Of a stretch of DNA of 64,000 nucleotides, positions 8,937 to 63,635 are shown one piece after another (the first letter of the stretch is position 1; each line of letters starts with the position of its first letter). The stretch lies in IMG/VR virus record IMGVR_UViG_3300020198_000009, positions 1-64,000 of that record; one strand, given 5' to 3'. The notes below the pieces were generated by a model. The model made no database searches, was not told the DNA's origin, and saw only the letters and a list, made by a program, of their open reading frames with translations. The position numbers and the translations under genes are program-made. The stretch comes from a virus.

Positions 8937-9233
8937 TTACGGGTCGCAGCGGACCATTTCGGCGGCCACCTGGTCCCGGGCGAGAGCGTCCGACGCCGCC
9001 CACTCGGGAACCCGGTTCTCCCGGACGGCCTCCTTGCAGAGGGTCTTCCGGGTCACGAAGAGCACCGCCATCTCCTCGCGGGCACAGGAATACTCGTCGT
9101 AGGCAGCCTGGGCCAGCGCCCAGGCGCCTGACGACCTGGCATCGGACTCGGCGGTTTCGTAAGCCAGGCGCGCCAGCCTGACCCACCACCAGGTCCGGTG
9201 AAATAGCGTCAAGAACTCCAGGTAGTCCTTCAC
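8937..9233 (-). CDS. Unknown helical protein (98 aa)
   Basis: GTG start at 9233 overlapping the upstream stop as GTGA; first residues MKDYLEFLTLFHRTWWWVRL. The protein is helical, aromatic at the N-terminus and mixed-charge later (ARLAYETAESDARSSG). The sequence contains no metal site or membrane segment. It is translated from the same message as the 136-residue gene, downstream of the tRNA-like elements. Confidence 0.6.
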   Translation of the reverse strand: MKDYLEFLTLFHRTWWWVRLARLAYETAESDARSSGAWALAQAAYDEYSCAREEMAVLFVTRKTLCKEAVRENRVPEWAASDALARDQVAAEMVRCDP

Positions 9234-9640
9234 GCGCCGCGGCCCCCCCGCGGGGCCTGGTAGTGCCGCCGGCGCTCGGCCAGCTGCGCGCGGATGAGCG
9301 CGCGCAGCCGATCCGCGTGATACCCGAGCCGGTCGGCCCACCAGGCCAACGAGCCCGGGGCCGCCCCTGTGGCGCCGAGCCAGGCCCACGTCTCTCCCCG
9401 GTCGCTCCGGAGGTCGGCGATGGCCTGCCGGACGACCGCCCAGGCGATCGTCCGCTCGGCGCCGGCGGCCAGATCGAGGGGCCGGCCGACCGTGGCCCTG
9501 GCCCGGTCGAGGACCTCCATGGCCTCGACCAGGTGGGCCTGGGCGTAGTCCCGGCCCTCGGGGGTGCGGCAACGCCGCGCGGCCCGTCGCCAGAAGGCGA
9601 CCAGGCGCTCGGCGTTGCCGAGGTAGAGCAGGTCCTGCAT
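9230..9640 (-). CDS. Unknown helical protein (136 aa)
   Basis: ATG preceded by AAAGGAGG. The sequence is Arg/Ala/Leu/Trp-rich (MQDLLYLGNAERLVAFWRRA), predicted helical throughout, with an Arg-rich C-terminus (RRRHYQAPRGGRGA) that could bind nucleic acid. It begins only 22 bases after the tRNA-like element at 9663-9740 and is probably co-transcribed with it. No family recognised. Confidence 0.6.
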   Translation of the reverse strand: MQDLLYLGNAERLVAFWRRAARRCRTPEGRDYAQAHLVEAMEVLDRARATVGRPLDLAAGAERTIAWAVVRQAIADLRSDRGETWAWLGATGAAPGSLAWWADRLGYHADRLRALIRAQLAERRRHYQAPRGGRGA

Positions 9641-9662: not shown

Positions 9663-9740
9663 TGGAACCACCGGGACTCGAACCCGGCTCCCTCCTGTGC
9701 GCTTTGGCTTTCGGGAGGGAGGGCACCTGCGACTGGTCCC
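9663..9740 (-). ncRNA. tRNA-like element 2, alanine-type acceptor stem, no anticodon arm
   Basis: Read on the minus strand it starts GGGACCA and ends TGGTTCC-A, a 7-bp acceptor stem whose third pair is G-U and whose next unpaired base is A. A canonical T arm precedes the 3' strand: CCGGG-TTCGAGT-CCCGG. Between them, instead of D and anticodon arms, lies a long CTCCCTCC/GGAGGGAG stem with a large loop. A G3-U70 pair plus A73 is the known alanyl-tRNA synthetase identity set and works on minihelices; charging here is inferred. CCA is not encoded. It begins one base after element 1. Confidence 0.6.
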
Positions 9741-9741
9741 A

Positions 9742-9806
9742 TGGTGGAGCCGGCGGGTACTGACCCCGCGTGCCAGGCTTGCGCCCGGTCGACCCTTTAC
9801 GGCCCC
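9742..9806 (-). ncRNA. tRNA-like element 1, tmRNA-end-like, alanine-type acceptor with encoded CCA
   Basis: Minus-strand sequence starting GGGGCCG and ending CGGCTCC-A-CCA: a 7-bp acceptor stem with a G3-U70 pair, A73 and encoded CCA. The T arm is GCGGG-GTCAGTA-CCCGC. Between acceptor and T arm are an unpaired TAAAGGGTCGA and a 6-bp CCGGGC/GCCTGG stem capped by a GCAA tetraloop. The 5' GGGTCGACCGGG and 3' end resemble the tRNA-like domain of tmRNA (GGxTTCGACxGGG and CCCGCxxGCTCCACCA), but there is no messenger domain and total length is only 65. The phage-type -10 box at 9812-9817 would place the transcript start at or near its first base. Confidence 0.6.
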
Positions 9807-9811
9807 ATGAA

Positions 9812-9817
9812 ATTATC
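9812..9817 (-). promoter_or_regulatory. -10 box of the tRNA-like transcript
   Basis: Minus-strand GATAAT followed by TTC, matching the TATAATTTC/TATAATTC boxes at other phage gene starts. The first base of tRNA-like element 1 lies six bases downstream, the usual distance to a transcription start. Confidence 0.5.
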
Positions 9818-10422
9818 GCCAGGGTGGCGCCTGGACTTCCAGTGATGGGGACGGGCTGCTCATACTGCCCGTCGCTCCCGGATCCCGGCTTGGTGTTTTG
9901 GGCCGCAAACCACAATCGGCCTCTTGCACCGGGAGCAAAACTTGGCGAGTGCCCGTCAGCGCTGCACGCAGTACCCCTGGAAACGGGGCAGATCCCGAAG
10001 GACCAGGACGGGTTTCTCGCCAGTATGGAGTATACCAGCCGACCCGGGGTTGGGTCAAGCTGGGGTTGCCCCTCGGCCTCCGGCCCCGGGCCGGGGGTCA
10101 TCGGACGCGACCGAAATCCCGGCGCCTCCCGTCCTCTGCGCCTGCCGGTCTATGGCTGCGCCGACGAGGACGGGAGTCGCCGAAAAGCCCTCGCGCGCTG
10201 TGTCGATGTTGTCGTTACGCGAGATGCGAGGGCCCGGGGGAGATCCCACCCGAGCGCCTGCTGCATGCTGCGCCGAGTGGGTGGGATCTCCTCGTAGCTG
10301 GCATCAGATCTCGATGCCAGCCTCCTCATGACTACCCCTTCCTGTCCCTCGCGGGACGGTCGCGGCGCAGTGGCGGCGGCTCGATGCCAGGCCTTGCGCC
10401 AGGTGGTGGTGGTGGGGGGGGG
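9818..10422 (-). ncRNA. 605-base structured noncoding segment
   Basis: No credible gene. Long perfect arms: GACGGGC (9850-9856) with 9867-9873; CTCCCGG (9875-9881) with 9929-9935; CTCCCGTCCTC (10126-10136) with 10166-10176; GGAGATCCCACCC (10239-10251) with 10279-10291; CTGGCAT/ATGCCAG at 10298-10320. A TATACT box on the minus strand (10029-10034) is a possible internal promoter. It ends just after the stop of the 119-residue gene. Candidate large structured RNA; class unknown. Confidence 0.5.
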
Positions 10423-33249: not shown

Positions 33250-34365
33250 TCAGGCCAGATGACCCAGGTCGGGCCGGTACTTCTCGATGATGGCGCGAAA
33301 ACGCGTCCTGGTGCGATCTATCAGCTTCTTGATGGCCGCCGGAGTCTTGCCCACCTCCAGCCCGAAACCCCGAGATCCAGCGGTCGCGTCCAGCCCGTCG
33401 GGGGTCGCAACGATTTCCGAGACCTCGCCGGCGATGTCGCGCTCGTCGAGGGGCACGGTGTGGTGATAGAGTCCGTGGAATGCCCCGAAGACGCTGCCCT
33501 CCATCGCTGACAGGTGGCTGACCAGCTGATTGAGCGATTCGACCGTCTCGTCGCTGACCAGGTACTCGACCAGATCCGAGCCGATGGGCAGATCGGTGAC
33601 CTGGGCGTAGCCGGTGTCCTCCTTCTGACTGTCGGGGGCATGGCTCACATCGGTCGGGTGAATCGACAATGCCCCGCCCAGCAGTGCCTGAATGTGAATG
33701 GCCTTGGTGGTGCCGAGCATGCGCAACTCGTCATGGAGGGCCGCGGCGCTCTCGGGATCCGGGGCCGAGGTCACCACGACGGCATTTTCTGGGATATCGT
33801 CCTCGGGGCCTATCAACAGCAGCTTGATTTCAGTGGGTTCCGGTTCTTTTTTCAGTTTTTCCGGCTGACCTTCCGGATCTTCCGGGTTTTCCAGGAATTC
33901 CGTACGACTGGGCACGAGCTTGCGGGTCCTGGCCTTCTTGGCGACCGTCACGCGCACGACCTTCCATGGGAGATCCGGGGTGAAGGTCTCGCAGGCGTGC
34001 CGGTTGAGGATCTTCTTGAGCTTCATGATGTCCTGGAAGGGCACCTTGGCGGCATAGCCCATCTCCGAGAGGTACTTGACGATTTCCTTGCGGACATGCC
34101 AACCGGCAAACGTCAGCAACCGGTAGCCCTGGGACATGTCGAAATGCCGGATTCCATGGAGGAGGCCCAGGATGGCCGACTGCTCCAGGTCCGCATGCTC
34201 GACCCAGGTCGGGGCCGTGAAGCGGTTGATCATCGTGGCGACAAAGGGCCGATGCGCCTCGATGAGCTCCTGGACGGCCCACTTGGCTGCCCGCGCATCG
34301 GGCCCCTGGGCAACGGCCAGCAGTTCGTACTCGTGCTTGGCCGTGATGACCTTGTGCGGTTTCAA
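33250..34365 (-). CDS. Phage sigma-70-family factor
   Basis: 371 residues from a TTG that overlaps the upstream stop as TTGA, with GGAAAG upstream. Residues about 28-110 match sigma region 2: LIEAHRPFVATMINRF, EHADLEQSAILGLLHGIRHF then TFAGWHVRKEIVKYL. After a long charged linker, the C-terminus has LDERDIAGEVSEIV and GKTPAAIKKLIDRTRTRFRA, consistent with region 4 (the -35-binding helix-turn-helix). It would direct core polymerase to phage promoters. Its partner could be host RNA polymerase or the phage beta/beta-prime protein at 59346. The acidic linker with Pro/Glu (about 150-200) is unusual. Confidence 0.8.
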   Translation of the reverse strand: MKPHKVITAKHEYELLAVAQGPDARAAKWAVQELIEAHRPFVATMINRFTAPTWVEHADLEQSAILGLLHGIRHFDMSQGYRLLTFAGWHVRKEIVKYLSEMGYAAKVPFQDIMKLKKILNRHACETFTPDLPWKVVRVTVAKKARTRKLVPSRTEFLENPEDPEGQPEKLKKEPEPTEIKLLLIGPEDDIPENAVVVTSAPDPESAAALHDELRMLGTTKAIHIQALLGGALSIHPTDVSHAPDSQKEDTGYAQVTDLPIGSDLVEYLVSDETVESLNQLVSHLSAMEGSVFGAFHGLYHHTVPLDERDIAGEVSEIVATPDGLDATAGSRGFGLEVGKTPAAIKKLIDRTRTRFRAIIEKYRPDLGHLA

Positions 34366-34790
34366 GCAGCGGGACTCTTTCCGGCCTTGGCGGCCTCGTA
34401 GGCACGATCGCAACCCAGCGGCAACCCGACGTCATGCCCATGGTGGTAGCCGATCTGGGGATCGCGCCGGTAGCCGACCGCCGCCCGGGCCGGTCGCCAG
34501 GCCTCGCCCCCGAACGGCGACTGCTTGGGATAGCACAAGGTGTAGAGCACGGCCCAGAACGCTTCGAGCTGGTAGTCCGCCGGCACCTGGGGCAAGAAGC
34601 GCACGTGCTCGACCGTCATGCCGCCAGGCGCGAAGGCGAAGACGAGCTCCTCGATGGCAAAACCGCGATCCGCCAGGTCCTTGAGGGCGCATTCGATACC
34701 GATGCAAGCGTCGGCGAACTGGCCACCCCCTTCGCGCAACGCGGCCGCAATGGCCTCTTGGAGGTAGTCGGCTGCGTCGGATTCGGTCAC
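34362..34790 (-). CDS. Unknown protein coupled to the sigma factor (142 aa)
   Basis: GTG at 34790 with GGAG eight bases upstream; begins MTESDAADYLQEAIAAALRE. Helical N-terminal half, then FAFAPGGMTVEHVRFLPQVP and a His-rich segment (YRRDPQIGYHHGHDVGLP). Its stop shares TTGA with the sigma factor start, so the two are made together; an anti-sigma or sigma-partner role is possible but purely from position. Confidence 0.55.
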   Translation of the reverse strand: MTESDAADYLQEAIAAALREGGGQFADACIGIECALKDLADRGFAIEELVFAFAPGGMTVEHVRFLPQVPADYQLEAFWAVLYTLCYPKQSPFGGEAWRPARAAVGYRRDPQIGYHHGHDVGLPLGCDRAYEAAKAGKSPAA

Positions 34791-50160: not shown

Positions 50161-53058
50161 ATGTCGAGCGAGACCTTCATCGAGGACGGCGAAACCGGAC
50201 GCCGCGTCATCGTCACGGACCGAAAGAAGATTGCCGAGGCGGTACTGCATCTCAAGGGCAGGCCCCTCAAGCTCGACAACTACCGGCCCTTCCATGCCAT
50301 CTACCGCACTTCGGCACAAAACCTTGTGATACAGGCGGGACGGCAAGTGTCAAAATGTGGCACCGGCGAGAACATGATCCCCATGTTCAACGGCATGCCG
50401 GCCAGGCTCGGCGCCCTCCGGCCAGGCGATAAGGTTTTGTCTCTGGCATCTGGCTACCGCCTGGTGACTGGACAGGTGAGCGACACCATCCAAGCCGGCA
50501 GGAAGCCATGCGTGCGCCTGACGACCCGCTTGGGGCACGAGCTGGAGGTCGCCCGGAGTCATCCGATTCGCGGTCTGTTCGACTACTATCCGGCGGGCGA
50601 ACTCAAGATTGGCGACCGAGTGGCGGCTGTGCGTCGCGGCGGCTCCTTCACAGACCTGAACCCCATAACGCCGACCGAGGCCATGGTGCTCGCCTACATG
50701 ATTGGCGACGGCAGCGCTCAGGGTAAGCAGAACTTCGGCTTCACGAACTCCAAACCGGAGATCTTGGCCGAGTTCCGGTCATGCTGCGCCATGCTGGGCC
50801 AGGTCGCGCCACGAGAGTACGAACGCAAGGGCTCCTTGACGCTTCGGCTCTCGCTGGCATCGGATGCCCCGGTTCGTCGTCTCCTGGAACATCAGGGTAT
50901 CTATGGCAAGACCTCGGAAACGAAGTTCATCCCAGCCGAGGTATTCGACCTCGATCGCGAGCGCACGGCGCTCTTCCTGAATCGACTCTGGGCGTGCGAT
51001 GGCCATGCCAAGCAACTCAATCCTGGGAAATATGAAATCCACTACGCCACAATCTCGAAAAAACTGGCCCATGGCGTTCAAGCGCTCCTGTGGAAGTTCG
51101 GAATCCCGGCCTCGGTATCCCGGAGTCAACCGAAAGTCTATATAGGCACCAACAAATTCGCCTACAAGGTGCGAATTGAAACCCAAGAAGGTATCCGCCG
51201 CTTCTTGACCGAGATCGGCGCTTTCATGAAGAGCGAGAGCATCCCACTTCCGGCAGCCGAGAGTAACAATAACCGCGATACCATCCCGCAGGACGTGCAA
51301 AAGCTCATCACGGCACTCTACGAGCGCGCCCTGGCCCGGGATGCCCTGTGCGGACCCGGGCGTGCGGGGCGGCCTAGGGCTAGCATCACGGATCACGGCC
51401 TGCGCGCCACCCTAAAATACCCCCCCTCGCCACGAAAGATCGCCCAATACGTCGAGTTCTTTCAGCAGATCGGGCTCGGAGACGAACCGGAAACCATTAC
51501 CCTCGAATCACTGATCAACAACGACGTGATCTGGGATAAGATTATTGCGATCGAAGACATCGGCATGCAGGATTGTTACGACATCGAAGTCGATGTTCTG
51601 CACAACTACATCCTGGGCGGCGTTGTCACCCATAACTCGACCACCCTGGGAAACTGGTCCATCACCGACGCCATCGGCGTGCCCCATTCCGAGCAGTTGA
51701 TCGTCCTGCCCTCGATCATGCAGATGCGCCGCTTCTCATCGGACAAAGTGGGAAAAATCGTCGCCACCAGCCCGCTTGTCAAGAAATGGTTCGTCGACCA
51801 CACCTGCGAGCGCGCCATCTACAAACGCAGCTTCCTCAACGGCTCGACCATGGAATTCGCCGCCATGACCCAGATGGAATCCATACGCGGCGGCGCCAAG
51901 AACCGGGTGTCGGAAGACGAAGTGCAGGACATGGACCTGGACGCGCTTGCCATAGTGGAGGAGGTGCTAAGCGGACAAGCAAGTGACAAGATAGCAATTG
52001 CCCGCACCGGCACGGCCAAGACCGTCGGCAACACGCTGGATGTGACGTTCAAGAAATCGAGCCAGTGCGAATGGATAGTGCCATGCCCAAGCGGTCACCA
52101 CAACGTCCCGAGCCCGGACAACATCGGCGATCGGGGCTTCATTTGCAAGAAATGCCGCAGCCTCTGCGACGTGCGCGGTGGCTACTGGCGCTCCATGGCG
52201 GGCCTCGACGCCGAGTGGATGGGCTTCCACATCCCCCAGATCATCCTGCCGCTCCATACCGAGGACCAAGGAAACTGGCGCAAGCTCCTGCGAAAGCGCA
52301 ACGGCGGCGTCAGCCCGGTCGTCTTTCTCAACGAGGTCATGGGCATTCCTGCCGGCTCGGGCATCACCGCCCTGACCGAAGAGGACCTGATCAAGTGCTG
52401 CGAACCGGTCTACGAGATAGACCCCCACTACTTCCGCGGCAAGGACCACGACATCGCCGTGGTATTCGGTACCTGCGACTGGGGCCTGATGGCCATCAAG
52501 AGCTTCACGATTGCCAGCATCTGGGGGATCACCAAGGCCGGGCGCATCAAGCTGCTGTTTGCCTATCGCTTCCTGGACCCCGATCCCTACAAGCAGGTCG
52601 AGCAGATCATCCGGCTCTTCACGAACGCGGGGGTCGAGCTGGTCGGCTGCGACTGGGGCATGGGCATGATCCAGAGCCGCATCATCGAGGAGCAGATGCC
52701 CCAGGTCCCGGTCCATCGCTTTATGTACGTCGGCGAGCAGCGGGCCCTGATGAGCTGGTACAAGGAGGGCAAGCTCTGGCGGGTGAACCGTACCCAGGCC
52801 ATGACCGAAGCTTTCGTCTGGATGAAGCGCCAGCGTTTCTGGTTCCCGAACTGGTCATGGTTCAAGGAATACATCGCGCCGGATATATTATGTATTTACG
52901 AAGAGGCAGTAAATCAAGTCACATTCAAGAACGATGTCATACGGTACGCACACCCCGATTCCCAGGCCGATGACGCCACTCACACCTGCGTCTACGCCCT
53001 GCTGCTCCTTTGGATCCTTTATGACCGCGGCCGTACGGAGTTCCATCTGGCAGGCTAG
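50161..53058 (+). CDS. terL: Terminase large subunit with an intein (TerL precursor)
   Basis: 965-residue precursor: 538 residues of terminase interrupted by a 427-residue intein. The flanking exteins rejoin as GRQVSK-STTLGNW, a terminase Walker A. Later motifs include a Walker B-like SEDEVQDMD, and nuclease-domain aspartates in CDWGLMAIKSF, GCDWGMGM and DSQADDATH. TerL cuts concatemers and pumps DNA through the portal. Lone rightward gene between two leftward blocks, controlled by the operator at 50137. Activity depends on splicing, because the intein splits the ATP-binding loop. Confidence 0.9.
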   Translation: MSSETFIEDGETGRRVIVTDRKKIAEAVLHLKGRPLKLDNYRPFHAIYRTSAQNLVIQAGRQVSKCGTGENMIPMFNGMPARLGALRPGDKVLSLASGYRLVTGQVSDTIQAGRKPCVRLTTRLGHELEVARSHPIRGLFDYYPAGELKIGDRVAAVRRGGSFTDLNPITPTEAMVLAYMIGDGSAQGKQNFGFTNSKPEILAEFRSCCAMLGQVAPREYERKGSLTLRLSLASDAPVRRLLEHQGIYGKTSETKFIPAEVFDLDRERTALFLNRLWACDGHAKQLNPGKYEIHYATISKKLAHGVQALLWKFGIPASVSRSQPKVYIGTNKFAYKVRIETQEGIRRFLTEIGAFMKSESIPLPAAESNNNRDTIPQDVQKLITALYERALARDALCGPGRAGRPRASITDHGLRATLKYPPSPRKIAQYVEFFQQIGLGDEPETITLESLINNDVIWDKIIAIEDIGMQDCYDIEVDVLHNYILGGVVTHNSTTLGNWSITDAIGVPHSEQLIVLPSIMQMRRFSSDKVGKIVATSPLVKKWFVDHTCERAIYKRSFLNGSTMEFAAMTQMESIRGGAKNRVSEDEVQDMDLDALAIVEEVLSGQASDKIAIARTGTAKTVGNTLDVTFKKSSQCEWIVPCPSGHHNVPSPDNIGDRGFICKKCRSLCDVRGGYWRSMAGLDAEWMGFHIPQIILPLHTEDQGNWRKLLRKRNGGVSPVVFLNEVMGIPAGSGITALTEEDLIKCCEPVYEIDPHYFRGKDHDIAVVFGTCDWGLMAIKSFTIASIWGITKAGRIKLLFAYRFLDPDPYKQVEQIIRLFTNAGVELVGCDWGMGMIQSRIIEEQMPQVPVHRFMYVGEQRALMSWYKEGKLWRVNRTQAMTEAFVWMKRQRFWFPNWSWFKEYIAPDILCIYEEAVNQVTFKNDVIRYAHPDSQADDATHTCVYALLLLWILYDRGRTEFHLAG
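50356..51636 (+). mobile_element. Intein with LAGLIDADG-type homing endonuclease in the TerL P-loop
   Basis: Begins with Cys (CGTGENMIPMFNG, block A), has a block-B-like ARSHPIRG, two LAGLIDADG-like helices (AYMIGDGSAQG near residue 180 of the intein-containing precursor and LNRLWACDGHAK near residue 275), and ends VDVLHNYILGGVVTHN before Ser. These are the N- and C-terminal splicing motifs with an Asn/Ser junction. All expected residues appear intact, so protein splicing and homing are predicted. Exact insertion is between Lys and Ser of the Walker A. Confidence 0.85.
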
Positions 53059-55314: not shown

Positions 55315-56426
55315 TCCGCACCACCAAGTCGCTCTACCTGCGCACGGTCGAACTGGCCAAGGACACGGTACCCGAGCCCTTCCTGAATTACGGCCACGCC
55401 GACGATCTGGGCCTGGGCTGGTTTCCATCGCGCGAGGCGTTCTCGGACAATGCCGATCCGGTCTTTTGGCGTGGGTTGCCACGCTTCTGCGGGGCGGTCT
55501 TCCCCTACCGCCACAACTTCCAGACCCTCTCACACCTGACCATCATCCCCTATACCGAATTCAATCAGCTCGATCGCCAGAAACGCTTCTGTCTGCCCAA
55601 CCGGCGACGCACCGGCAAGACGCCCGCCGGAGTCTTCGGCATCGAGCGCCTGCGCCGCAAACACAAGGTCCTGGTGGTCACCGACGACGAGGCCGCGGTC
55701 TGCAAGGATCCCGACACGATCGCCGTGAGCAACCTCGACGCCACCCTGATTCGCTTCATCTGCCGCGCGGCCCACAACATCGAGGTACAGGGCTCGACCG
55801 CGGGCTGGACGGCCAGGATGTTCGATCTCGCGCGCCATGGCACCCCGGTGAGCGTCAACGGCGTGGACATGGTCGAGCACGTCGCGGGCAAGATCCTGGA
55901 GATGTTCCACCAGCGCGCATCGCTGCCCATCCTGACCCACCGCGCCGTCGAGTACCTCAACTGCCTGCTGCCCATCCAGCGCATGGCCGTCATCGGCATC
56001 CTCAAGCAGGAGCACAACCTCGATCTGTCCCGCACGTTGCCCGACGACTTCCATGTCTTCCGCCGCGAGGGGGATTTCTATGATGCCGTGGGGCAGGCGC
56101 TCCGTGCCAAGCTGGCCGACGCGCGCTTCGAACCGCCTTTCGGGATCCAGGTGACCAGCCGGGACGGCAGGCGCCTGCTGGTGCCCTACGAACGGGGAGT
56201 CCTGGGGGCGGTACTGGCCGAGCTGGTGGGCGCCAGGCTCGACCTGCTCGACTGGGCCTATGATCAATTGCAGGAGCTCCCTCACTTCTATCTCTTCAAG
56301 GAGCACGAGCAGCTGGCCACCCGGGCCGAGGTCTCGCGCAAGGTCGAAGAGGTGGCCCTGGCCGTCTTGAGCCGCATGGCCGCCGAGGCCGACGCCCGCA
56401 AACCGATCGGGAGGATAGCGCAATGA
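55311..56426 (+). CDS. Unknown protein, 371 aa
   Basis: Start MIRTTKSLYLRTVELAKDTV fixed by ATGA overlap with the upstream stop. Mixed alpha/beta with a basic segment (RFCLPNRRRTGKTPAGVFGI) and HKVLVVTDDEAAVCKDPDTI, a strand-plus-acidic pattern that could be a Toprim- or nuclease-like core, but no complete motif is seen. The C-terminal half is helical. It precedes the tag-protein series and is coupled to it. Confidence 0.5.
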   Translation: MIRTTKSLYLRTVELAKDTVPEPFLNYGHADDLGLGWFPSREAFSDNADPVFWRGLPRFCGAVFPYRHNFQTLSHLTIIPYTEFNQLDRQKRFCLPNRRRTGKTPAGVFGIERLRRKHKVLVVTDDEAAVCKDPDTIAVSNLDATLIRFICRAAHNIEVQGSTAGWTARMFDLARHGTPVSVNGVDMVEHVAGKILEMFHQRASLPILTHRAVEYLNCLLPIQRMAVIGILKQEHNLDLSRTLPDDFHVFRREGDFYDAVGQALRAKLADARFEPPFGIQVTSRDGRRLLVPYERGVLGAVLAELVGARLDLLDWAYDQLQELPHFYLFKEHEQLATRAEVSRKVEEVALAVLSRMAAEADARKPIGRIAQ

Positions 56427-57883
56427 CCCCCTACGAGCACTACCTGCTGGCCAAGGAAGCGAACTGGCTGGGGAATATCGGCCAGGGGTTTGCGCAAGCC
56501 GGCCGCAACGTCGGCCAGGCCGCCAAGCAGACCTGGACATTCGCGCGCAACCAAGGCCAGGAGCAGTCGGCCAATTGGTTTGGCCGCCAGCTGGGTGAAA
56601 ACGCCATACGGGGCTATCGCAACGAGCCCCTCTCAGCCTGGGGGCAACTCAAGGCCTTCGGGGTCGGCGTCTTGAGTCCGACTGCCGGCCAGGCCATGCT
56701 CGCCAGCCACTCGGGCGGGCGGGCAGTCGGGGGCGCTCAGGCGATCGCCGACTGGGCGCGGCCCCACCTGGCTCGCTTCGGTCGGCCCAAGCCCCAACCG
56801 GTCCATCCGGGGCTGCTGATCGCCGGCGGCCTGGGTGCCGGGGCGGCGGGCTACGGGGCCGCCCGGCTCATCGACGCCAAACAGCAGGAGGCCCAGGCGC
56901 AACGCCAGAACGCCCTGCTATCGCGCCAATTGACGCCCTACGAGGAGGCTCCGTACCAGAAGGTCGCCCAGATCCGGGCCCTGCTGGACACCGAGCGCGA
57001 CCTGCGCGCGGGCCTGATGGCCTCAGCCAAGGCCGCCGCGGCCCGGCGTGCCGAAGCCTGGCGCCACGGATCCCGCGAGGCCGAAGCCGAATCGGAAGGC
57101 GAGCCGGGCGGCGTCAAGCGGGCCGAGCTCGATCGCACCGCCACCAGGCTCCTGCGCGCCATCGAGCCGAAGTATGGCGGCTGCTGCCAGGATCTCGTCG
57201 AAGGCAAGGCGCTCGACAACGCCCATGCCCGTGGTGACCACCTACTAACCGAAAACGATGTCCAGAAAGCCTGGCGGGAGCATGGCCGGCCCTACCTCAT
57301 CCGTGAGAAGCTCGAAAAATCCGAGAGCTTGCCACACAAACTCGCCAGCCGCATCTTCCTGGGCGGGGCGGTCTCGGGCCCGCAGGCCAACTGGCGTGAG
57401 GGGATCAAGCGCAAGCTCTGGGAGAAGGGCCACAGCGTCATCGATCCCCGCAAGCCCTTCGTCAAGTGGAATCCGCTCTCGGACATCTACAAGGAGCTCG
57501 CGGGCATGATGAGGGCCGACAAGGTGTTCTTCTTCCGGCCCGGGGGCTTTTCTGAGCGCGAGAAGGCCGTGCTGGAGGCCGCGAAGAAACCCTACCAGGT
57601 GGTGCGCAAGCCCGAGGAGATCGTCCAGGCCGTCGAACAGAAGCGGGCCTACGATGCTATGCTGCCGGTCGATCTGCGCGGGGCCGGGACCCAGACGCCC
57701 TCGGCCTTCCCGGTCGACCAGCACGGCCAGCCCATGACCACCTTGCGCGGCATGCTCGAAGGCGACCTCGCTATGATCACCCTGGCAAGGTACCTGCGCG
57801 ACAAGAAGCTCAGCGAATTCGATCCCATCCTCTTGTCGCTGCTCGAACAGGCGGGCAAGCGCGCACTGACCAGGAGGCCCTGA
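56423..57883 (+). CDS. Tag-family protein with deoxyribosyltransferase-like C-terminus (486 aa)
   Basis: Starts MTPYEHYLLAKEANWLGNIG. N-terminal third: Gly/Ala-rich hydrophobic helices (PGLLIAGGLGAGAAGYGAAR). C-terminal domain contains ASRIFLGGAVSGPQANWREG, a strand followed by a GG-x-V turn and W, and KRKLWEKGHSVIDPRK: the pattern of the nucleoside 2-deoxyribosyltransferase/SIR2-like fold group. Enzyme identity is uncertain. A tag, a membrane-active region and a possible nucleoside-binding domain in one protein suggests an injected effector. Confidence 0.5.
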   Translation: MTPYEHYLLAKEANWLGNIGQGFAQAGRNVGQAAKQTWTFARNQGQEQSANWFGRQLGENAIRGYRNEPLSAWGQLKAFGVGVLSPTAGQAMLASHSGGRAVGGAQAIADWARPHLARFGRPKPQPVHPGLLIAGGLGAGAAGYGAARLIDAKQQEAQAQRQNALLSRQLTPYEEAPYQKVAQIRALLDTERDLRAGLMASAKAAAARRAEAWRHGSREAEAESEGEPGGVKRAELDRTATRLLRAIEPKYGGCCQDLVEGKALDNAHARGDHLLTENDVQKAWREHGRPYLIREKLEKSESLPHKLASRIFLGGAVSGPQANWREGIKRKLWEKGHSVIDPRKPFVKWNPLSDIYKELAGMMRADKVFFFRPGGFSEREKAVLEAAKKPYQVVRKPEEIVQAVEQKRAYDAMLPVDLRGAGTQTPSAFPVDQHGQPMTTLRGMLEGDLAMITLARYLRDKKLSEFDPILLSLLEQAGKRALTRRP

Positions 57884-59345: not shown

Positions 59346-62300
59346 ATGCGCGCGCCAGCCGAGACCCACCAGGCGATGACCCGGGCGCTGGAAGCCGGCC
59401 TCAAGCAGGTATTCCCGGTTGCGGCCGGCAACCGCATGCTCGATCTGGTCGCGGTCCATGCCCCCGACCTGCCGGATCCCCATGACTGGAACGGCCAGAA
59501 GGACGCGGTCATGGATGGTAGGACCTGGGGCAGCCCACTGCGCGCCACCCTGGCGCTCAAGGATGCACAGGGCAAGGTGCTCGACCAGAAGGCCGTGAGG
59601 CTGGCCACCATACCGGCTCCGACCAATCGCCACACGTTCATCGTCGATGGCCGGGAGTACCAGGTCAACTACCAGCGCCGGCTGAAACCCGGGATCTACA
59701 CCAAGGTCGATCGCACCGGCGCACCGGTGGCCGACTTCAACCTCGGACATGGCCGCAACTTCGCCGTCACGCTCGACCCGGAACGGAACCAGTTCCATCT
59801 GCGCCTGGGCAACGCCCACATCCCCCTGGGCCATGTCCTGGCTGGCCTGCGCGAATCGGGAGATCCCTCCCTGGGGCTGGGCAAGGCCTTCGAGCACCCG
59901 GCGGGCCCGGAGGAGACCGAGCGCGCCTTGCGGGAATTCTATGTCCAGACCCACCGCAACAAACCCATCCCTGCCGACCTGGCAGGCCTCAAGGCCGCCG
60001 TCCGCACCTGGTTCGACCACGCTACGCTCTCGCCCGAGACCACCCGGCTCACGGTCGGCGAATCCTACGGCCATGTCACCGACCAGGCGTTGCGGACTGC
60101 CGCGAGGCATGTCCTGGAAATCCACCGCGGCGATCGTCATCCGACCCACAAGGATCAGCTGGCTTACCAGGAGATCCACGGGGTCGAGGACTTCCTCAAG
60201 GAACGCCTGGTCAAGAACAAGCTGGGGCTGCACGGCCGGTTGCGCCAGACCCTCGATCGGGCCGACAAGCTCGCGGACCTCAACCTACCGGCGACCTTCG
60301 GGCCGTCAGTGCACCACTTCTTCACCCAGAGCTCGCTCTCGAACCATCCCATGCAGGTCAACCCGCTGGAAATGGCCGAGAACGCCCACAAGATCACCTC
60401 GATGGGCGAAGGCGGCATCGGAGACGCCAACGCCATCCCGATCGAGGTCAGGAACATCCATCCATCCACGTTGGGCTTCATCGACCCGGTCCGCACGCCC
60501 GACAACGCCCATGCCGGCGTGGATGTCCGCACCACCGTGCGCTCCCGCAAGGTCGGGAACCAGCTGGCGATTCCCGTCCGCGATGCCAGGACCGGCCGGG
60601 AGGTCTTCAAGACCCCTGGCGAGCTGTTCGACACGCACGTCGCCCACGACAGGGAGCCCGCCGAGAACGGCGTGGTACGCGCCATCCACCAGGGCCATGT
60701 CGTCTGGGCAAAGCCAGAGCAGATAGACTACCACCTCCCGACCGAGCACCAGTTCACGGTCAGTACGGCCCTGGTGCCCTTCATCCCCAACAGCCACGCC
60801 CACCGGGTGGCCATGGGCGCCAAGATGCTGGGCCAAGCCGTCAGTCTCGACGACCGCGAGGCGCCGATCGTGCGGACCGCCCATGCAAATACCGCGATCT
60901 CGGGCCTGTTGCCGCGCAGCCCGGTCGACGGGACCGTGGCCACGATCGTGAACGGAGCCATCAAGATCCAGGACAAGGACGGCAAGAGTCACCTCGCGCA
61001 CTATCCGCACGAGTTTCCGCTCAACGGCGGCTCGTTCCTGCATGCAGACCTGCATGTCAAGCCCGGCGACCGGGTCTCGCAAGGGCAGGTCCTCGGCGAC
61101 TTGAACTTCACCCGCGACGGCAACCTTGCACTTGGAAAAAATTTAACCGTTGCTTATCTGCCGTATCGTGGCCATAACTTCGAAGACGGCCTGGTGGTTA
61201 CCGAACAGGGTGCCCGCAAGCTTACCAGCAGCCACCTGCATACCGAAGTCGCCCTCAAGGACGGCCGCAACGTCTACGATCTCAAGCAGTTCAAGGGCCA
61301 CTTCCCCTCGACCTACACCCACGAGCAGCTCGGCAAACTCGATCCCCATGGCGTGGTACGCGTGGGCCAGGAGGTCGTCGAGGGCGACCCGCTGGTCGCG
61401 GGCCTGCGCAAGCGCGTGGTCGATCCCGAGCAGCTCATCCTGGGTAAGGCCCACAAGGGCCTCATGGAGCCCTACCGGGACGCCAGCCTGACCTGGGACA
61501 AGCCCTACGCCGGCAAGATCACGGCCGTATCCAAGACCGGCGACCAAATAAAGGTGACCATCCAGGCCAAGGCGCCGCTCCAGTTGGCCGACAAAATCTC
61601 TAATTTGTACGGCGCGAAGGGCGTCGTGACAACGATCATCCCCGACCACGAGGCGCCCCGGACAGCCAGCGGTGAGATCCCCGACGTCATCCAGAACTCG
61701 GCGGGCCTGATCAGCCGCATGAACAACGGCCAGCTCTACCACCTGACCGCCGCCAAGGCCGTCAAGGCCCTGGGGCTCGATCACATGGTCTTCCCGCAGT
61801 TCCTGGGCCAGGACGCCCACGAAGTGGTCTCGCGCCTGGCCGAAAAGGCCGGCATCGCCCCGGAAGAAGAGCTGTTCGACCCCAAGACCAATCGCAGTCT
61901 GGGTAAGGTGATGATCGGCCCGCAGTACATGCTCAAGCTCTTCAAACAAGCCGAGACCGGCTTCTCGGCGCGGGCCGGCGGGCGTTATGACGTCGATCTG
62001 CGACCGGCCAAGGGCGGCGAGGAGGGGGCCAAGTCCATCGGCTACCTCGACGTCTTCGGGTTGCTCAGTCACGGCAGCCGTGGCCTGTTGCGCCAGGCGG
62101 CGACCACCAATGCCGAATTCAACCCCGAGGTCTTGCAAGCCATATGGCGGGGCCAGCCCCTGCCGCCCCCCAGGCCCACGTTTGCCTGGCGGAAGTTCGA
62201 GGCCATGTTGCGCGGGGCGGGCGTCAACGTCACCCAGGACGGCCACAAGCTGGTCATGCTGCCGATGACCGACCAGGACACCCTGCGAGTCTCGCAGGGC

Positions 62301-63635
62301 CAGATCCGCAAACCCCTGCTGGTCAACGCCAAGGAGGACCCTCGCACCGGCCTGCCCTTCCGGCCCGAAACGGGCGGTCTGTTCGATCACGAGTCCACCG
62401 GCGGCCTGGTCGGCAACAAGTGGTCGCATATCACGTTGCCCGAGCCCGTGGTGAGCCCGCTGTTCGCCCGGCCGGCCCGCATCCTGCTCGGAATGAGCCA
62501 GCAGGCTTTCGGTGAGACGATGGCCACCGAGGGCGGGGCGGGTATCGCCAAGCGCCTGGCCGGGATCGATCCGAAGACGCGCATCGCCGAACTCGGCGAG
62601 CGGCTCAAGACGACCAGCGCGGCGGCCAAGCGCGACCAGATCCACAAGCAGCTCAAGTACCTCAAGCCGCTGGCCGCCCACGGCATCAGCCCGGCCGACG
62701 CGTACGTCGTGCGCCATGTGCCGGTCATCCCTCCCGCGATGCGGCCCATCTACCCGGACGCCGACACCGGCAAGCTGGTCAACTCGGATGCCAACCTGCT
62801 CTACCAGCACCTGCTGCTCATCGGGGATCAGCTGGCCCACCACCAGCACGAGGGCGATCCCGACACCGTGCGCGAATTGCGCCTGGGGCTGCATGACGCC
62901 CTGGCCAAGGTGCAGGGCCTCGACCCGACCACTGAATCCATGGGCAAGGGCTACGAGCCGCAGGGCTTCCTCAAGCTCATCACGGGCTCGCGCGCCAAGG
63001 AAGGCTTCTTCCAGAGTAAATTGCTCTCGCGGCGCCAGGACATCGCCGGCCGCGGGGTCATCACGCCCAATCCGGCGCTGGGTATCGACGAGCTGGGCTT
63101 GCCTGAGCCGATGGCCTGGAAGCTCTACCGCAACCATGTGGTGGGTGAGTTGACCCGGGCCGGCCTGCCGCTCGAAAGTATCGCCAAGCATGTCGAAGAG
63201 CAGACACCCCTGGCGCGCAAGGCCCTGCAAGCAACCATGGCCGACAATCCGGTGATCATGACCCGGGCGCCCAGCCTGCACCGCTTCAACCTCATGGCCT
63301 TCAAGCCGCAACTGACCAGCGGCAAGCACATCGAGGTTCCAAACCTGGTCGTCAAGGGCTTTAACGCTGACTTCGACGGTGACGCGGTCAACGTCCACAT
63401 CCCCATCACCCCGGAGGCCAAGGCCGACGCCTGGCGCGTGCTGCCATCGAAGAACCTATTCTCGACGCTCAACAAGAGCCCGATGCACACGCCCAGCCAG
63501 GAGGTCACCATGGGGCTCTGGAAGCTCGGCCAGCCCAATGGTAAGGCCACCCGGACCTTCAAGAGCCGCGCCGAAGCCATCGCCGCCTACAAGAAGGGCG
63601 ACATCGGCATCGCCGACCCGATCGAAATAGGTTGA
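59346..63635 (+). CDS. Phage RNA polymerase: beta fused to the N-terminal half of beta-prime
   Basis: 1429 residues. Beta motifs in order: HHFFTQSSLSNHPMQVNPLE near residue 325, DPVRTPDNAHAG, VAYLPYRGHNFEDGLVVTE near 600, ADKISNLYGAKGVVTTIIPD near 747, and a beta C-terminus GYLDVFGLLSHGSRGLLRQ near 898. Without a stop it passes into beta-prime: LLSRRQDIAGRGVITPNPAL, NPVIMTRAPSLHRFNL and the catalytic metal-binding NADFDGD at 1340-1346, then PSQEVTMGLW, ending at residue 1429. The rest of beta-prime (bridge helix and trigger loop) is absent and must be another gene. This is the core of a phage-encoded polymerase. Confidence 0.9.
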   Translation: MRAPAETHQAMTRALEAGLKQVFPVAAGNRMLDLVAVHAPDLPDPHDWNGQKDAVMDGRTWGSPLRATLALKDAQGKVLDQKAVRLATIPAPTNRHTFIVDGREYQVNYQRRLKPGIYTKVDRTGAPVADFNLGHGRNFAVTLDPERNQFHLRLGNAHIPLGHVLAGLRESGDPSLGLGKAFEHPAGPEETERALREFYVQTHRNKPIPADLAGLKAAVRTWFDHATLSPETTRLTVGESYGHVTDQALRTAARHVLEIHRGDRHPTHKDQLAYQEIHGVEDFLKERLVKNKLGLHGRLRQTLDRADKLADLNLPATFGPSVHHFFTQSSLSNHPMQVNPLEMAENAHKITSMGEGGIGDANAIPIEVRNIHPSTLGFIDPVRTPDNAHAGVDVRTTVRSRKVGNQLAIPVRDARTGREVFKTPGELFDTHVAHDREPAENGVVRAIHQGHVVWAKPEQIDYHLPTEHQFTVSTALVPFIPNSHAHRVAMGAKMLGQAVSLDDREAPIVRTAHANTAISGLLPRSPVDGTVATIVNGAIKIQDKDGKSHLAHYPHEFPLNGGSFLHADLHVKPGDRVSQGQVLGDLNFTRDGNLALGKNLTVAYLPYRGHNFEDGLVVTEQGARKLTSSHLHTEVALKDGRNVYDLKQFKGHFPSTYTHEQLGKLDPHGVVRVGQEVVEGDPLVAGLRKRVVDPEQLILGKAHKGLMEPYRDASLTWDKPYAGKITAVSKTGDQIKVTIQAKAPLQLADKISNLYGAKGVVTTIIPDHEAPRTASGEIPDVIQNSAGLISRMNNGQLYHLTAAKAVKALGLDHMVFPQFLGQDAHEVVSRLAEKAGIAPEEELFDPKTNRSLGKVMIGPQYMLKLFKQAETGFSARAGGRYDVDLRPAKGGEEGAKSIGYLDVFGLLSHGSRGLLRQAATTNAEFNPEVLQAIWRGQPLPPPRPTFAWRKFEAMLRGAGVNVTQDGHKLVMLPMTDQDTLRVSQGQIRKPLLVNAKEDPRTGLPFRPETGGLFDHESTGGLVGNKWSHITLPEPVVSPLFARPARILLGMSQQAFGETMATEGGAGIAKRLAGIDPKTRIAELGERLKTTSAAAKRDQIHKQLKYLKPLAAHGISPADAYVVRHVPVIPPAMRPIYPDADTGKLVNSDANLLYQHLLLIGDQLAHHQHEGDPDTVRELRLGLHDALAKVQGLDPTTESMGKGYEPQGFLKLITGSRAKEGFFQSKLLSRRQDIAGRGVITPNPALGIDELGLPEPMAWKLYRNHVVGELTRAGLPLESIAKHVEEQTPLARKALQATMADNPVIMTRAPSLHRFNLMAFKPQLTSGKHIEVPNLVVKGFNADFDGDAVNVHIPITPEAKADAWRVLPSKNLFSTLNKSPMHTPSQEVTMGLWKLGQPNGKATRTFKSRAEAIAAYKKGDIGIADPIEIG

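What the first reader, a model, noticed from the sequence alone, without database searches (positions are those of the whole stretch)
9663..9806. Tandem tRNA-like RNAs with alanine identity acceptor stems but no anticodon
Seen: two consecutive minus-strand elements (65 and 78 bases, one base apart). Each has a 7-bp acceptor stem with a G-U at the third pair, followed by A, and a T-arm hairpin with a 7-base loop. Element 1 ends in CCA and element 2 has the canonical TTCGAGT T loop. Neither has D or anticodon arms: element 1 has a GCAA-capped stem, element 2 a long GC stem. Known: G3-U70 with A73 is the alanyl-tRNA synthetase identity set and works on acceptor/T minihelices. Element 1 also resembles the tRNA-like domain of tmRNA stripped of its message. 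Inferred: the phage makes alanylatable RNAs that cannot decode, perhaps decoys of tmRNA/ribosome rescue or Ala donors. A phage -10 box starts at the right place.
Basis: partly seen in the sequence, partly recalled or inferred. Interest (0 to 1): 0.82.

Follow-up and report, generated by a model that had tools for sequence, protein, structure and literature searches.

The report
Phage tagless tmRNAs, tandem copies
This phage carries two head-to-tail copies of the tRNA-like end of tmRNA (the bacterial RNA that frees stalled ribosomes) without the part that tags proteins for destruction; similar cut-down RNAs turn out to be common in viruses of bacteria, probably to jam or bypass the host's ribosome-rescue system.

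Summary
Element 1 (9742-9806, minus strand, 65 nt) is a tmRNA reduced to its tRNA-like domain (TLD): acceptor stem with G3-U70, A73 and CCA, tmRNA D-loop (GGGTCGAC), short P2 hairpin, T-arm, and no tag or pseudoknots. A covariance model built only from other viruses scores it 54.9 bits (1.9e-10); phage tRNAs reach at most 32 bits. Element 2 (9663-9740) is probably a second TLD: G3-U70, no anticodon arm, and a loop motif shared with tmRNA, but its model score is only tRNA-like and its D-loop is divergent. Such RNAs are widespread. I collected 133 viral contigs (100 distinct sequences) with strong covariation; G3-U70 occurs in 78 of 80 in a set where that pair was left free. They are nearly absent from bacterial genomes, and no SmpB gene was found in 41 carrier records. 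One phage example, DS6A, was already published; that kind of RNA inhibits host tmRNA in E. coli. About a fifth of the related RNA-polymerase phages carry full-length tmRNAs, so the window's RNA is probably a stripped, duplicated descendant. Best mechanism: alanylatable, SmpB-binding decoys that suppress trans-translation (inferred). Identity is well supported; function is not tested here.

The parts
9742..9806 (-). Element 1: TLD-only (tagless) tmRNA, 65 nt with encoded CCA; acceptor 9800-9806/9746-9752, D-loop TAAAGGGTCGA, P2 CCGGGC-GCAA-GCCTGG, linker CAC, T-arm GCGGG-GTCAGTA-CCCGC
   Evidence: 54.9 bits, E 1.9e-10 with held-out model R1 and 47.1 bits with R2; phage tRNAs at most 32.1 bits under R1 and 34.9 under R2; Rfam tmRNA RF00023 end to end with the 312-nt middle deleted, 29.5 bits, below the gathering score
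9663..9740 (-). Element 2: probable second TLD, 78 nt plus CTA; acceptor GGGACCA/TGGTTCC with G3-U70, P2-like 8-bp stem with loop CGAAAGCCAAAGCGCACA, T-arm CCGGG-TTCGAGT-CCCGG
   Evidence: 36.5 bits with R2, not above the best phage tRNA by a useful margin (34.9); loop motif GAAAGCCAAAGCGCA matches class-2 TLDs (446 of 100000 shuffles as good) and 12 of 15 bases of the E. coli tmRNA segment typed in from memory; all 20 stem pairs form
10029..10058 (-). Candidate promoter TTGACC-18-TATACT (extended -10), about 215 nt upstream of element 1
   Evidence: Consensus scan, 10 of 12, none in 50 shuffles; not evidence of function
9230..9640 (-). Downstream ORF (136 aa) with Shine-Dalgarno AAAGGAGG, 22 nt after element 2; unknown protein
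   Evidence: no PHROGs or Pfam match

Best explanation
Element 1, and probably element 2, are phage-encoded tmRNAs reduced to the tRNA-like domain. They are transcribed (inferred) and cut out like tRNAs (inferred). Host alanyl-tRNA synthetase charges them through G3-U70/A73, and they bind SmpB and EF-Tu through the retained acceptor/T-arm/D-loop body (inferred from the retained parts). Having no resume codon, tag or pseudoknots, they cannot carry out tagging. They therefore compete with the host's full tmRNA for SmpB, EF-Tu and stalled ribosomes and damp trans-translation during infection, sparing truncated or slowly made phage proteins and keeping SmpB-dependent systems off. They most likely arose from a full-length phage tmRNA of the kind still present in related RNA-polymerase phages, by loss of the mRNA-like domain; the second copy may be a duplication.
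For: Identity of element 1: held-out model R1 54.9 bits against at most 32.1 for phage tRNAs. Minimal features expected 0.2 times per window, found twice and adjacent. Class: 133 viral contigs, 100 distinct RNAs of 62-84 nt; covariation score 0.64 and 0.71 against 0.15 and 0.17 in shuffles and at most 0.17 when slid; G3-U70 in 78 of 80 when 3:70 was left free. Ten loci scanned with Rfam: nine reach the tmRNA gathering score over the whole model with the middle missing. Not cellular: 2 of 119 matches of a similar scan of 84,980 genomes were TLD-only. No SmpB in 41 carrier records or in four isolate genomes, and no second tmRNA above cut-off in the 41. Origin: 9 of 46 RNAP-related phage records carry tmRNA of 348-398 nt, six with an ARAGORN tag reading frame; L551 starts GGGGGCGTAAAGGGTTCGACTGGG against GGGGCCGTAAAGGGTCGACCGGG in element 1. 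Function precedent: TLD-only RNA of phage DS6A and a similar molecule inhibit tmRNA, chargeable or not, perhaps by titrating SmpB (PMC4131195; PMC11915505, both citing Mao 2009, not read).
Against: No transcript data. Element 1's T-loop (GTCAGTA) loses U54 and A58, and element 2's D-loop loses the TCGAC motif and encodes CTA rather than CCA, so either could be partly decayed or retuned. Element 2's model score is at tRNA level. Tandem copies were not seen in any other locus, and no close relative of this phage was found, so conservation of the pair itself could not be tested. The 80 RNAP-related records had no TLD-only RNA above tRNA level.
Confidence: 0.6

Rival explanations
1. Tagless rescue: the charged TLD with SmpB enters stalled ribosomes and accepts the nascent chain onto alanine, giving a phage-favourable release or rescue without degradation tagging, as suggested for jakobid mitochondrial tagless tmRNAs.
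For: All charging features are kept; tagless mitochondrial tmRNAs co-occur with SmpB (PMC11915505).
Against: No ORF or stop codon to end translation; phages supply no SmpB and no release-factor-like protein (0 of 41 carrier records); published effect of such RNAs is inhibition.
Confidence: 0.13
2. Decoy against host RNA-targeting defence that senses or cuts tmRNA or tRNA, rather than against trans-translation itself.
For: CoCoNuT restriction systems carry SmpB-like domains predicted to bind tmRNA (PMC11090510); the RNAs are viral and sporadic.
Against: No defence target shown; indirect inference only.
Confidence: 0.1
3. Decaying remnants: a degenerate phage tmRNA or duplicated fragments, or an integration-site scar, with no present function.
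For: T-loop of element 1 and D-loop of element 2 deviate from consensus; some phages hold only tmRNA 3' ends beside integrase genes (LilSpotty).
Against: All 18 and 20 stem pairs are intact with G-U at acceptor pair 3:70 in both; both 5' and 3' halves are present, unlike an att scar; the class as a whole covaries strongly.
Confidence: 0.14
4. Non-translational alanine donor: Ala-charged minihelices feed a tRNA-dependent ligase or transferase.
For: Alanine identity is kept and there is no anticodon.
Against: Keeping the tmRNA D-loop and P2 points to SmpB; the 136-aa downstream gene matches no family and no transferase was found or specifically sought.
Confidence: 0.03

Closest known systems
TLD-only tmRNA of Mycobacterium phage DS6A (Hudson et al. 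2014 PMC4131195; Mao et al. 2009 as cited there)
   Same: Phage-encoded tmRNA consisting of little more than the TLD; no tag
   Different: Single copy in DS6A as described; here two tandem elements, in a phage with its own RNA polymerase. DS6A's sequence was not in the collection, so no direct comparison was made
Tagless mitochondrial (jakobid) and about 65-bp plastid (Mallomonadaceae) tmRNAs (PMC11915505)
   Different: Organellar; in jakobids co-occurring with nucleus-encoded SmpB. Here viral, no SmpB gene
Full-length phage tmRNAs (Mycobacterium phages Bxz1, Wildcat; L543-L551 here)
   Same: Same TLD; L551 shares most of the first 23 bases with element 1
   Different: About 350-400 nt; most with a tag reading frame
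Permuted two-piece tmRNA (RF04321; e.g. phage Melnitz)
   Same: tmRNA-derived, in phages
   Different: There the 3' half precedes the 5' half; here each element is complete in the normal order, and the permuted pairing has two mismatches

Membership tests
tmRNA (RF00023) | Score at or above the curated gathering threshold (47 bits) | tested here: not met
   Element 1 scores 29.5 bits; no match at threshold
tmRNA (RF00023) | mRNA-like domain: resume codon, tag ORF, pseudoknots | tested here: not met
   65 nt with the 312-nt model middle absent; no other tmRNA hit in the 80-kb record
TLD-only (tagless) phage tmRNA, element 1 | Acceptor with G3-U70, A73, CCA; D-loop GG..TCGAC without D-stem; P2 hairpin; 3-nt linker; T-arm | tested here: met
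   (54.9 bits, held out). T-loop deviates (GTCAGTA)
TLD-only (tagless) phage tmRNA, element 2 | Same features | tested here: inconclusive
   G3-U70, A73, T-arm, P2-like stem and loop motif present; D-loop motif and CCA absent; 36.5 bits against tRNA maximum 34.9
TLD-only (tagless) phage tmRNA | Inhibits host trans-translation | not testable with these tools
   Known for DS6A-type RNA only from papers
Canonical tRNA | D-stem, anticodon arm, anticodon | tested here: not met
   ARAGORN calls no tRNA; folds lack both arms
Permuted tmRNA (RF04321) | 3' TLD half upstream of the 5' half, pairing together | tested here: not met
   CGGCTCC against GGGACCA gives two A-C mismatches (pairs 4 and 7) while each pairs fully with its own partner; 30.5 bits against 47

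The most novel reading that the evidence does not exclude
TLD-only tmRNAs are a widespread, independently maintained class of viral anti-rescue (or anti-defence) RNAs, and this phage carries a tandem pair whose members have diverged (one atypical T-loop, one atypical D-loop) to hit different partners, for example SmpB/ribosome and alanyl-tRNA synthetase/EF-Tu.
Probability: 0.2. Interest if true: 0.88.

Novelty: new variant of a known kind. Interest (0 to 1): 0.72.

Why it matters
Phage TLD-only tmRNA was a single curiosity (DS6A) in the papers I could read. Here at least 133 viral contigs carry one, with strong covariation and with kept alanine identity, and almost none occur in bacterial genomes. 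That points to a common viral strategy aimed at ribosome rescue, a pathway whose role in infection is poorly understood. Isolated Streptomyces phages (pSt2308, LuckySocke, GiJojo, BRock) carry unannotated members, so it can be tested. Annotation tools miss or mislabel these RNAs.

Tried and rejected
Conservation in close relatives of the window phage: no relatives by DNA or by portal, RNA-polymerase or downstream-gene protein patterns. An alignment query found 80 distant RNAP relatives without TLD-only RNAs. SmpB partner on the phage: none. Alternative rescue factor (RF-1 domain) as partner: suggested by Tunturiibacter phage Tunturi_4, but that phage holds a tmRNA end rather than a TLD-only RNA, and 0 of 41 carriers have the factor. 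Stenotrophomonas, Xanthomonas and Tunturiibacter BLAST hits: only 3' tmRNA ends match, not TLD-only. Permuted tmRNA: rejected by pairing. tRNA-array membership: only 15 of 133 lie within 200 bp of a tRNA. Other tandem pairs: none; the dedicated scan mostly returns what looks like permuted tmRNAs (not classified in detail). Folding z-scores are not informative in this GC-rich genome. DS6A's sequence is not in the phage collection, and Mao 2009 is not held. The c-di-GMP and mascRNA Rfam matches are sub-threshold.

Full report
What is there. On the minus strand, 9806-9742 reads GGGGCCG-TAAAGGGTCGA-CCGGGC-GCAA-GCCTGG-CAC-GCGGG-GTCAGTA-CCCGC-CGGCTCC-A-CCA, and one base later 9740-9663 reads GGGACCA-GTCGCAGGTGCC-CTCCCTCC-CGAAAGCCAAAGCGCACA-GGAGGGAG-CCGGG-TTCGAGT-CCCGG-TGGTTCC-A, followed by CTA. 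Every stem pair forms, with G-U at acceptor pair 3 in both. ARAGORN merges the two into a 145-nt 'tmRNA' whose tag runs through the T-arm, and Rfam reports nothing at its thresholds. At relaxed thresholds the Rfam tmRNA model aligns to element 1 from first to last position with the 312-nt middle removed (29.5 bits). That score alone is not decisive, because weak tmRNA-model hits of 27-33 bits, not classified here but in the range expected of tRNAs, occur in other phage records.

A viral class of such RNAs. I scanned IMG/VR with a pattern for a compact TLD (GGGGNNG, TCGAC, TCRR, CTCCACCA within about 82 nt). That pattern fixes 3:70, so a second scan left the whole 5' acceptor strand and position 70 free. 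Of 122 distinct matches 80 have a paired acceptor and T-arm, and 78 of those have G3-U70. The two exceptions look like tRNAs. Pairs 4:69 to 7:66 and most T-stem pairs swap freely; some of the 80 came in through the first scan. In all, 133 viral contigs carry 100 distinct RNAs, one per locus. Two forms exist: class 1 (62-74 nt, short P2 hairpin, like element 1) and class 2 (76-84 nt, P2 with an inner AA..CC.AA.GGG-type loop). P2, which the patterns did not constrain, covaries strongly.

Placing the window. Models R1 (class 1) and R2 (class 2) were built without the window. R1 gives element 1 54.9 bits (E 1.9e-10), and the next match in 64 kb outside this pair scores 12.9. In 16 loci rich in tRNAs, TLDs score 51-83 and tRNAs at most 32.1 with R1. 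With R2 the loci that hold a TLD score 46.9-85 and tRNAs reach 34.9. Element 1 is therefore a TLD-only tmRNA. Element 2 scores 36.5 with R2 and 24.8 with R1, which does not separate it from tRNAs. Its case rests on G3-U70, A73, the missing anticodon arm, its head-to-tail position, and the loop GAAAGCCAAAGCGCA. I put element 2 at about 0.75 to be tmRNA-derived. The pair is not chance: 0.2 minimal elements are expected per window, and the only two present are adjacent.

Where these RNAs live. None of 41 viral records with a TLD (including the window's) encodes SmpB, and none has another tmRNA above the family cut-off. Most records are fragments, so absence is weak for each one alone, but the Streptomyces phage genomes pSt2308, LuckySocke, GiJojo and BRock (112-115 kb) also lack SmpB. 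They carry unannotated TLD-only RNAs (52-58 bits). Between these isolates pair 4:69 changes from G-C to U-A and 5:68 from C-G to U-A while G3-U70 stays.

Origin. The window phage encodes RNA polymerase related to that of Salmonella phage Arash and a sigma-70 region 2 protein. Of 46 RNAP-related viral records searched, 9 carry tmRNA of 348-398 nt above the Rfam cut-off; ARAGORN reads a tag in six, such as GAHAPALAA, AENQLPIAA, ANPNTGSFTAPLAAVA. One (L551) begins GGGGGCGTAAAGGGTTCGACTGGG, against GGGGCCGTAAAGGGTCGACCGGG in element 1. None of the 80 RNAP-related records has a TLD-only RNA above tRNA level. The simplest history, an inference, is loss of the mRNA-like domain from a phage tmRNA and then duplication. 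No other tandem pair was found in the held loci.

How it probably works. Shown by sequence: parts needed for alanine charging and most of the TLD body are kept, while tag and pseudoknots are gone. From papers: a TLD-only RNA is known from Mycobacterium phage DS6A, and such an RNA inhibits endogenous tmRNA in E. coli, with or without charging, perhaps by titrating SmpB (PMC4131195; PMC11915505; the primary paper, Mao et al. 2009, is not held). Inferred: the window RNAs do the same during infection. Tagless rescue, a defence decoy, and decay remain open. The atypical T-loop of element 1 and D-loop of element 2 keep decay or specialisation in play.

Novelty. The kind (phage TLD-only tmRNA) is known from one phage in the literature I could search. 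New here are its breadth in viruses, the two structural classes, the isolates, and the tandem form. I rate it a new variant of a known kind.

Noticed in passing
window 9807-10058, minus strand: Between a sigma70-like promoter match (10058-10029) and element 1 lie about 215 nt without a convincing ORF that can form nested long stems (TGGCGAG/CTCGCCA starting at the predicted +1, GCTCCCGG/CCGGGAGC, GACGGGC/GCCCGTC); possibly a structured leader or further ncRNA.
   Followed up: partly
window 56423-56461 (+) and L003 4049-4861 (-), 7304-8374, 8977-9453, 19165-19953 (+): Several otherwise different proteins carry a near-identical start or internal stretch (MTPYxxYMxKVA, also MNPYALYMSLVKEA), perhaps a shared targeting or processing leader of virion proteins.
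   Followed up: no
window 50161-53058 (+): The large terminase ORF (965 aa) matches terminase only from about residue 446 on; the preceding part looks like an intein.
   Followed up: no
window 33250-34413 (-) and 59346-63635 (+): Phage sigma-70 region 2 protein and a large RNA polymerase subunit related to Salmonella phage Arash and Vibrio phages D69/D181.
   Followed up: partly
L543-L551: tmRNAs of 348-398 nt in 9 of 46 RNAP-related viral records; several encode no CCA (e.g. ending CCACTG, CCACTA), as element 2 does.
   Followed up: partly
L320 (Tunturiibacter phage Tunturi_4): An RF-1-domain release/rescue-factor gene ends just upstream of a tmRNA 3' end.
   Followed up: partly
L336 (Streptomyces phage GiJojo) 299-541: An annotated hypothetical protein gene covers the TLD-only RNA and may be a mis-annotation.
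   Followed up: no
L267: Rumen Bacillota MAG contig with a TLD-only RNA among 21 tRNA genes in 8 kb; probably a phage contig binned with the bacterium.
   Followed up: no
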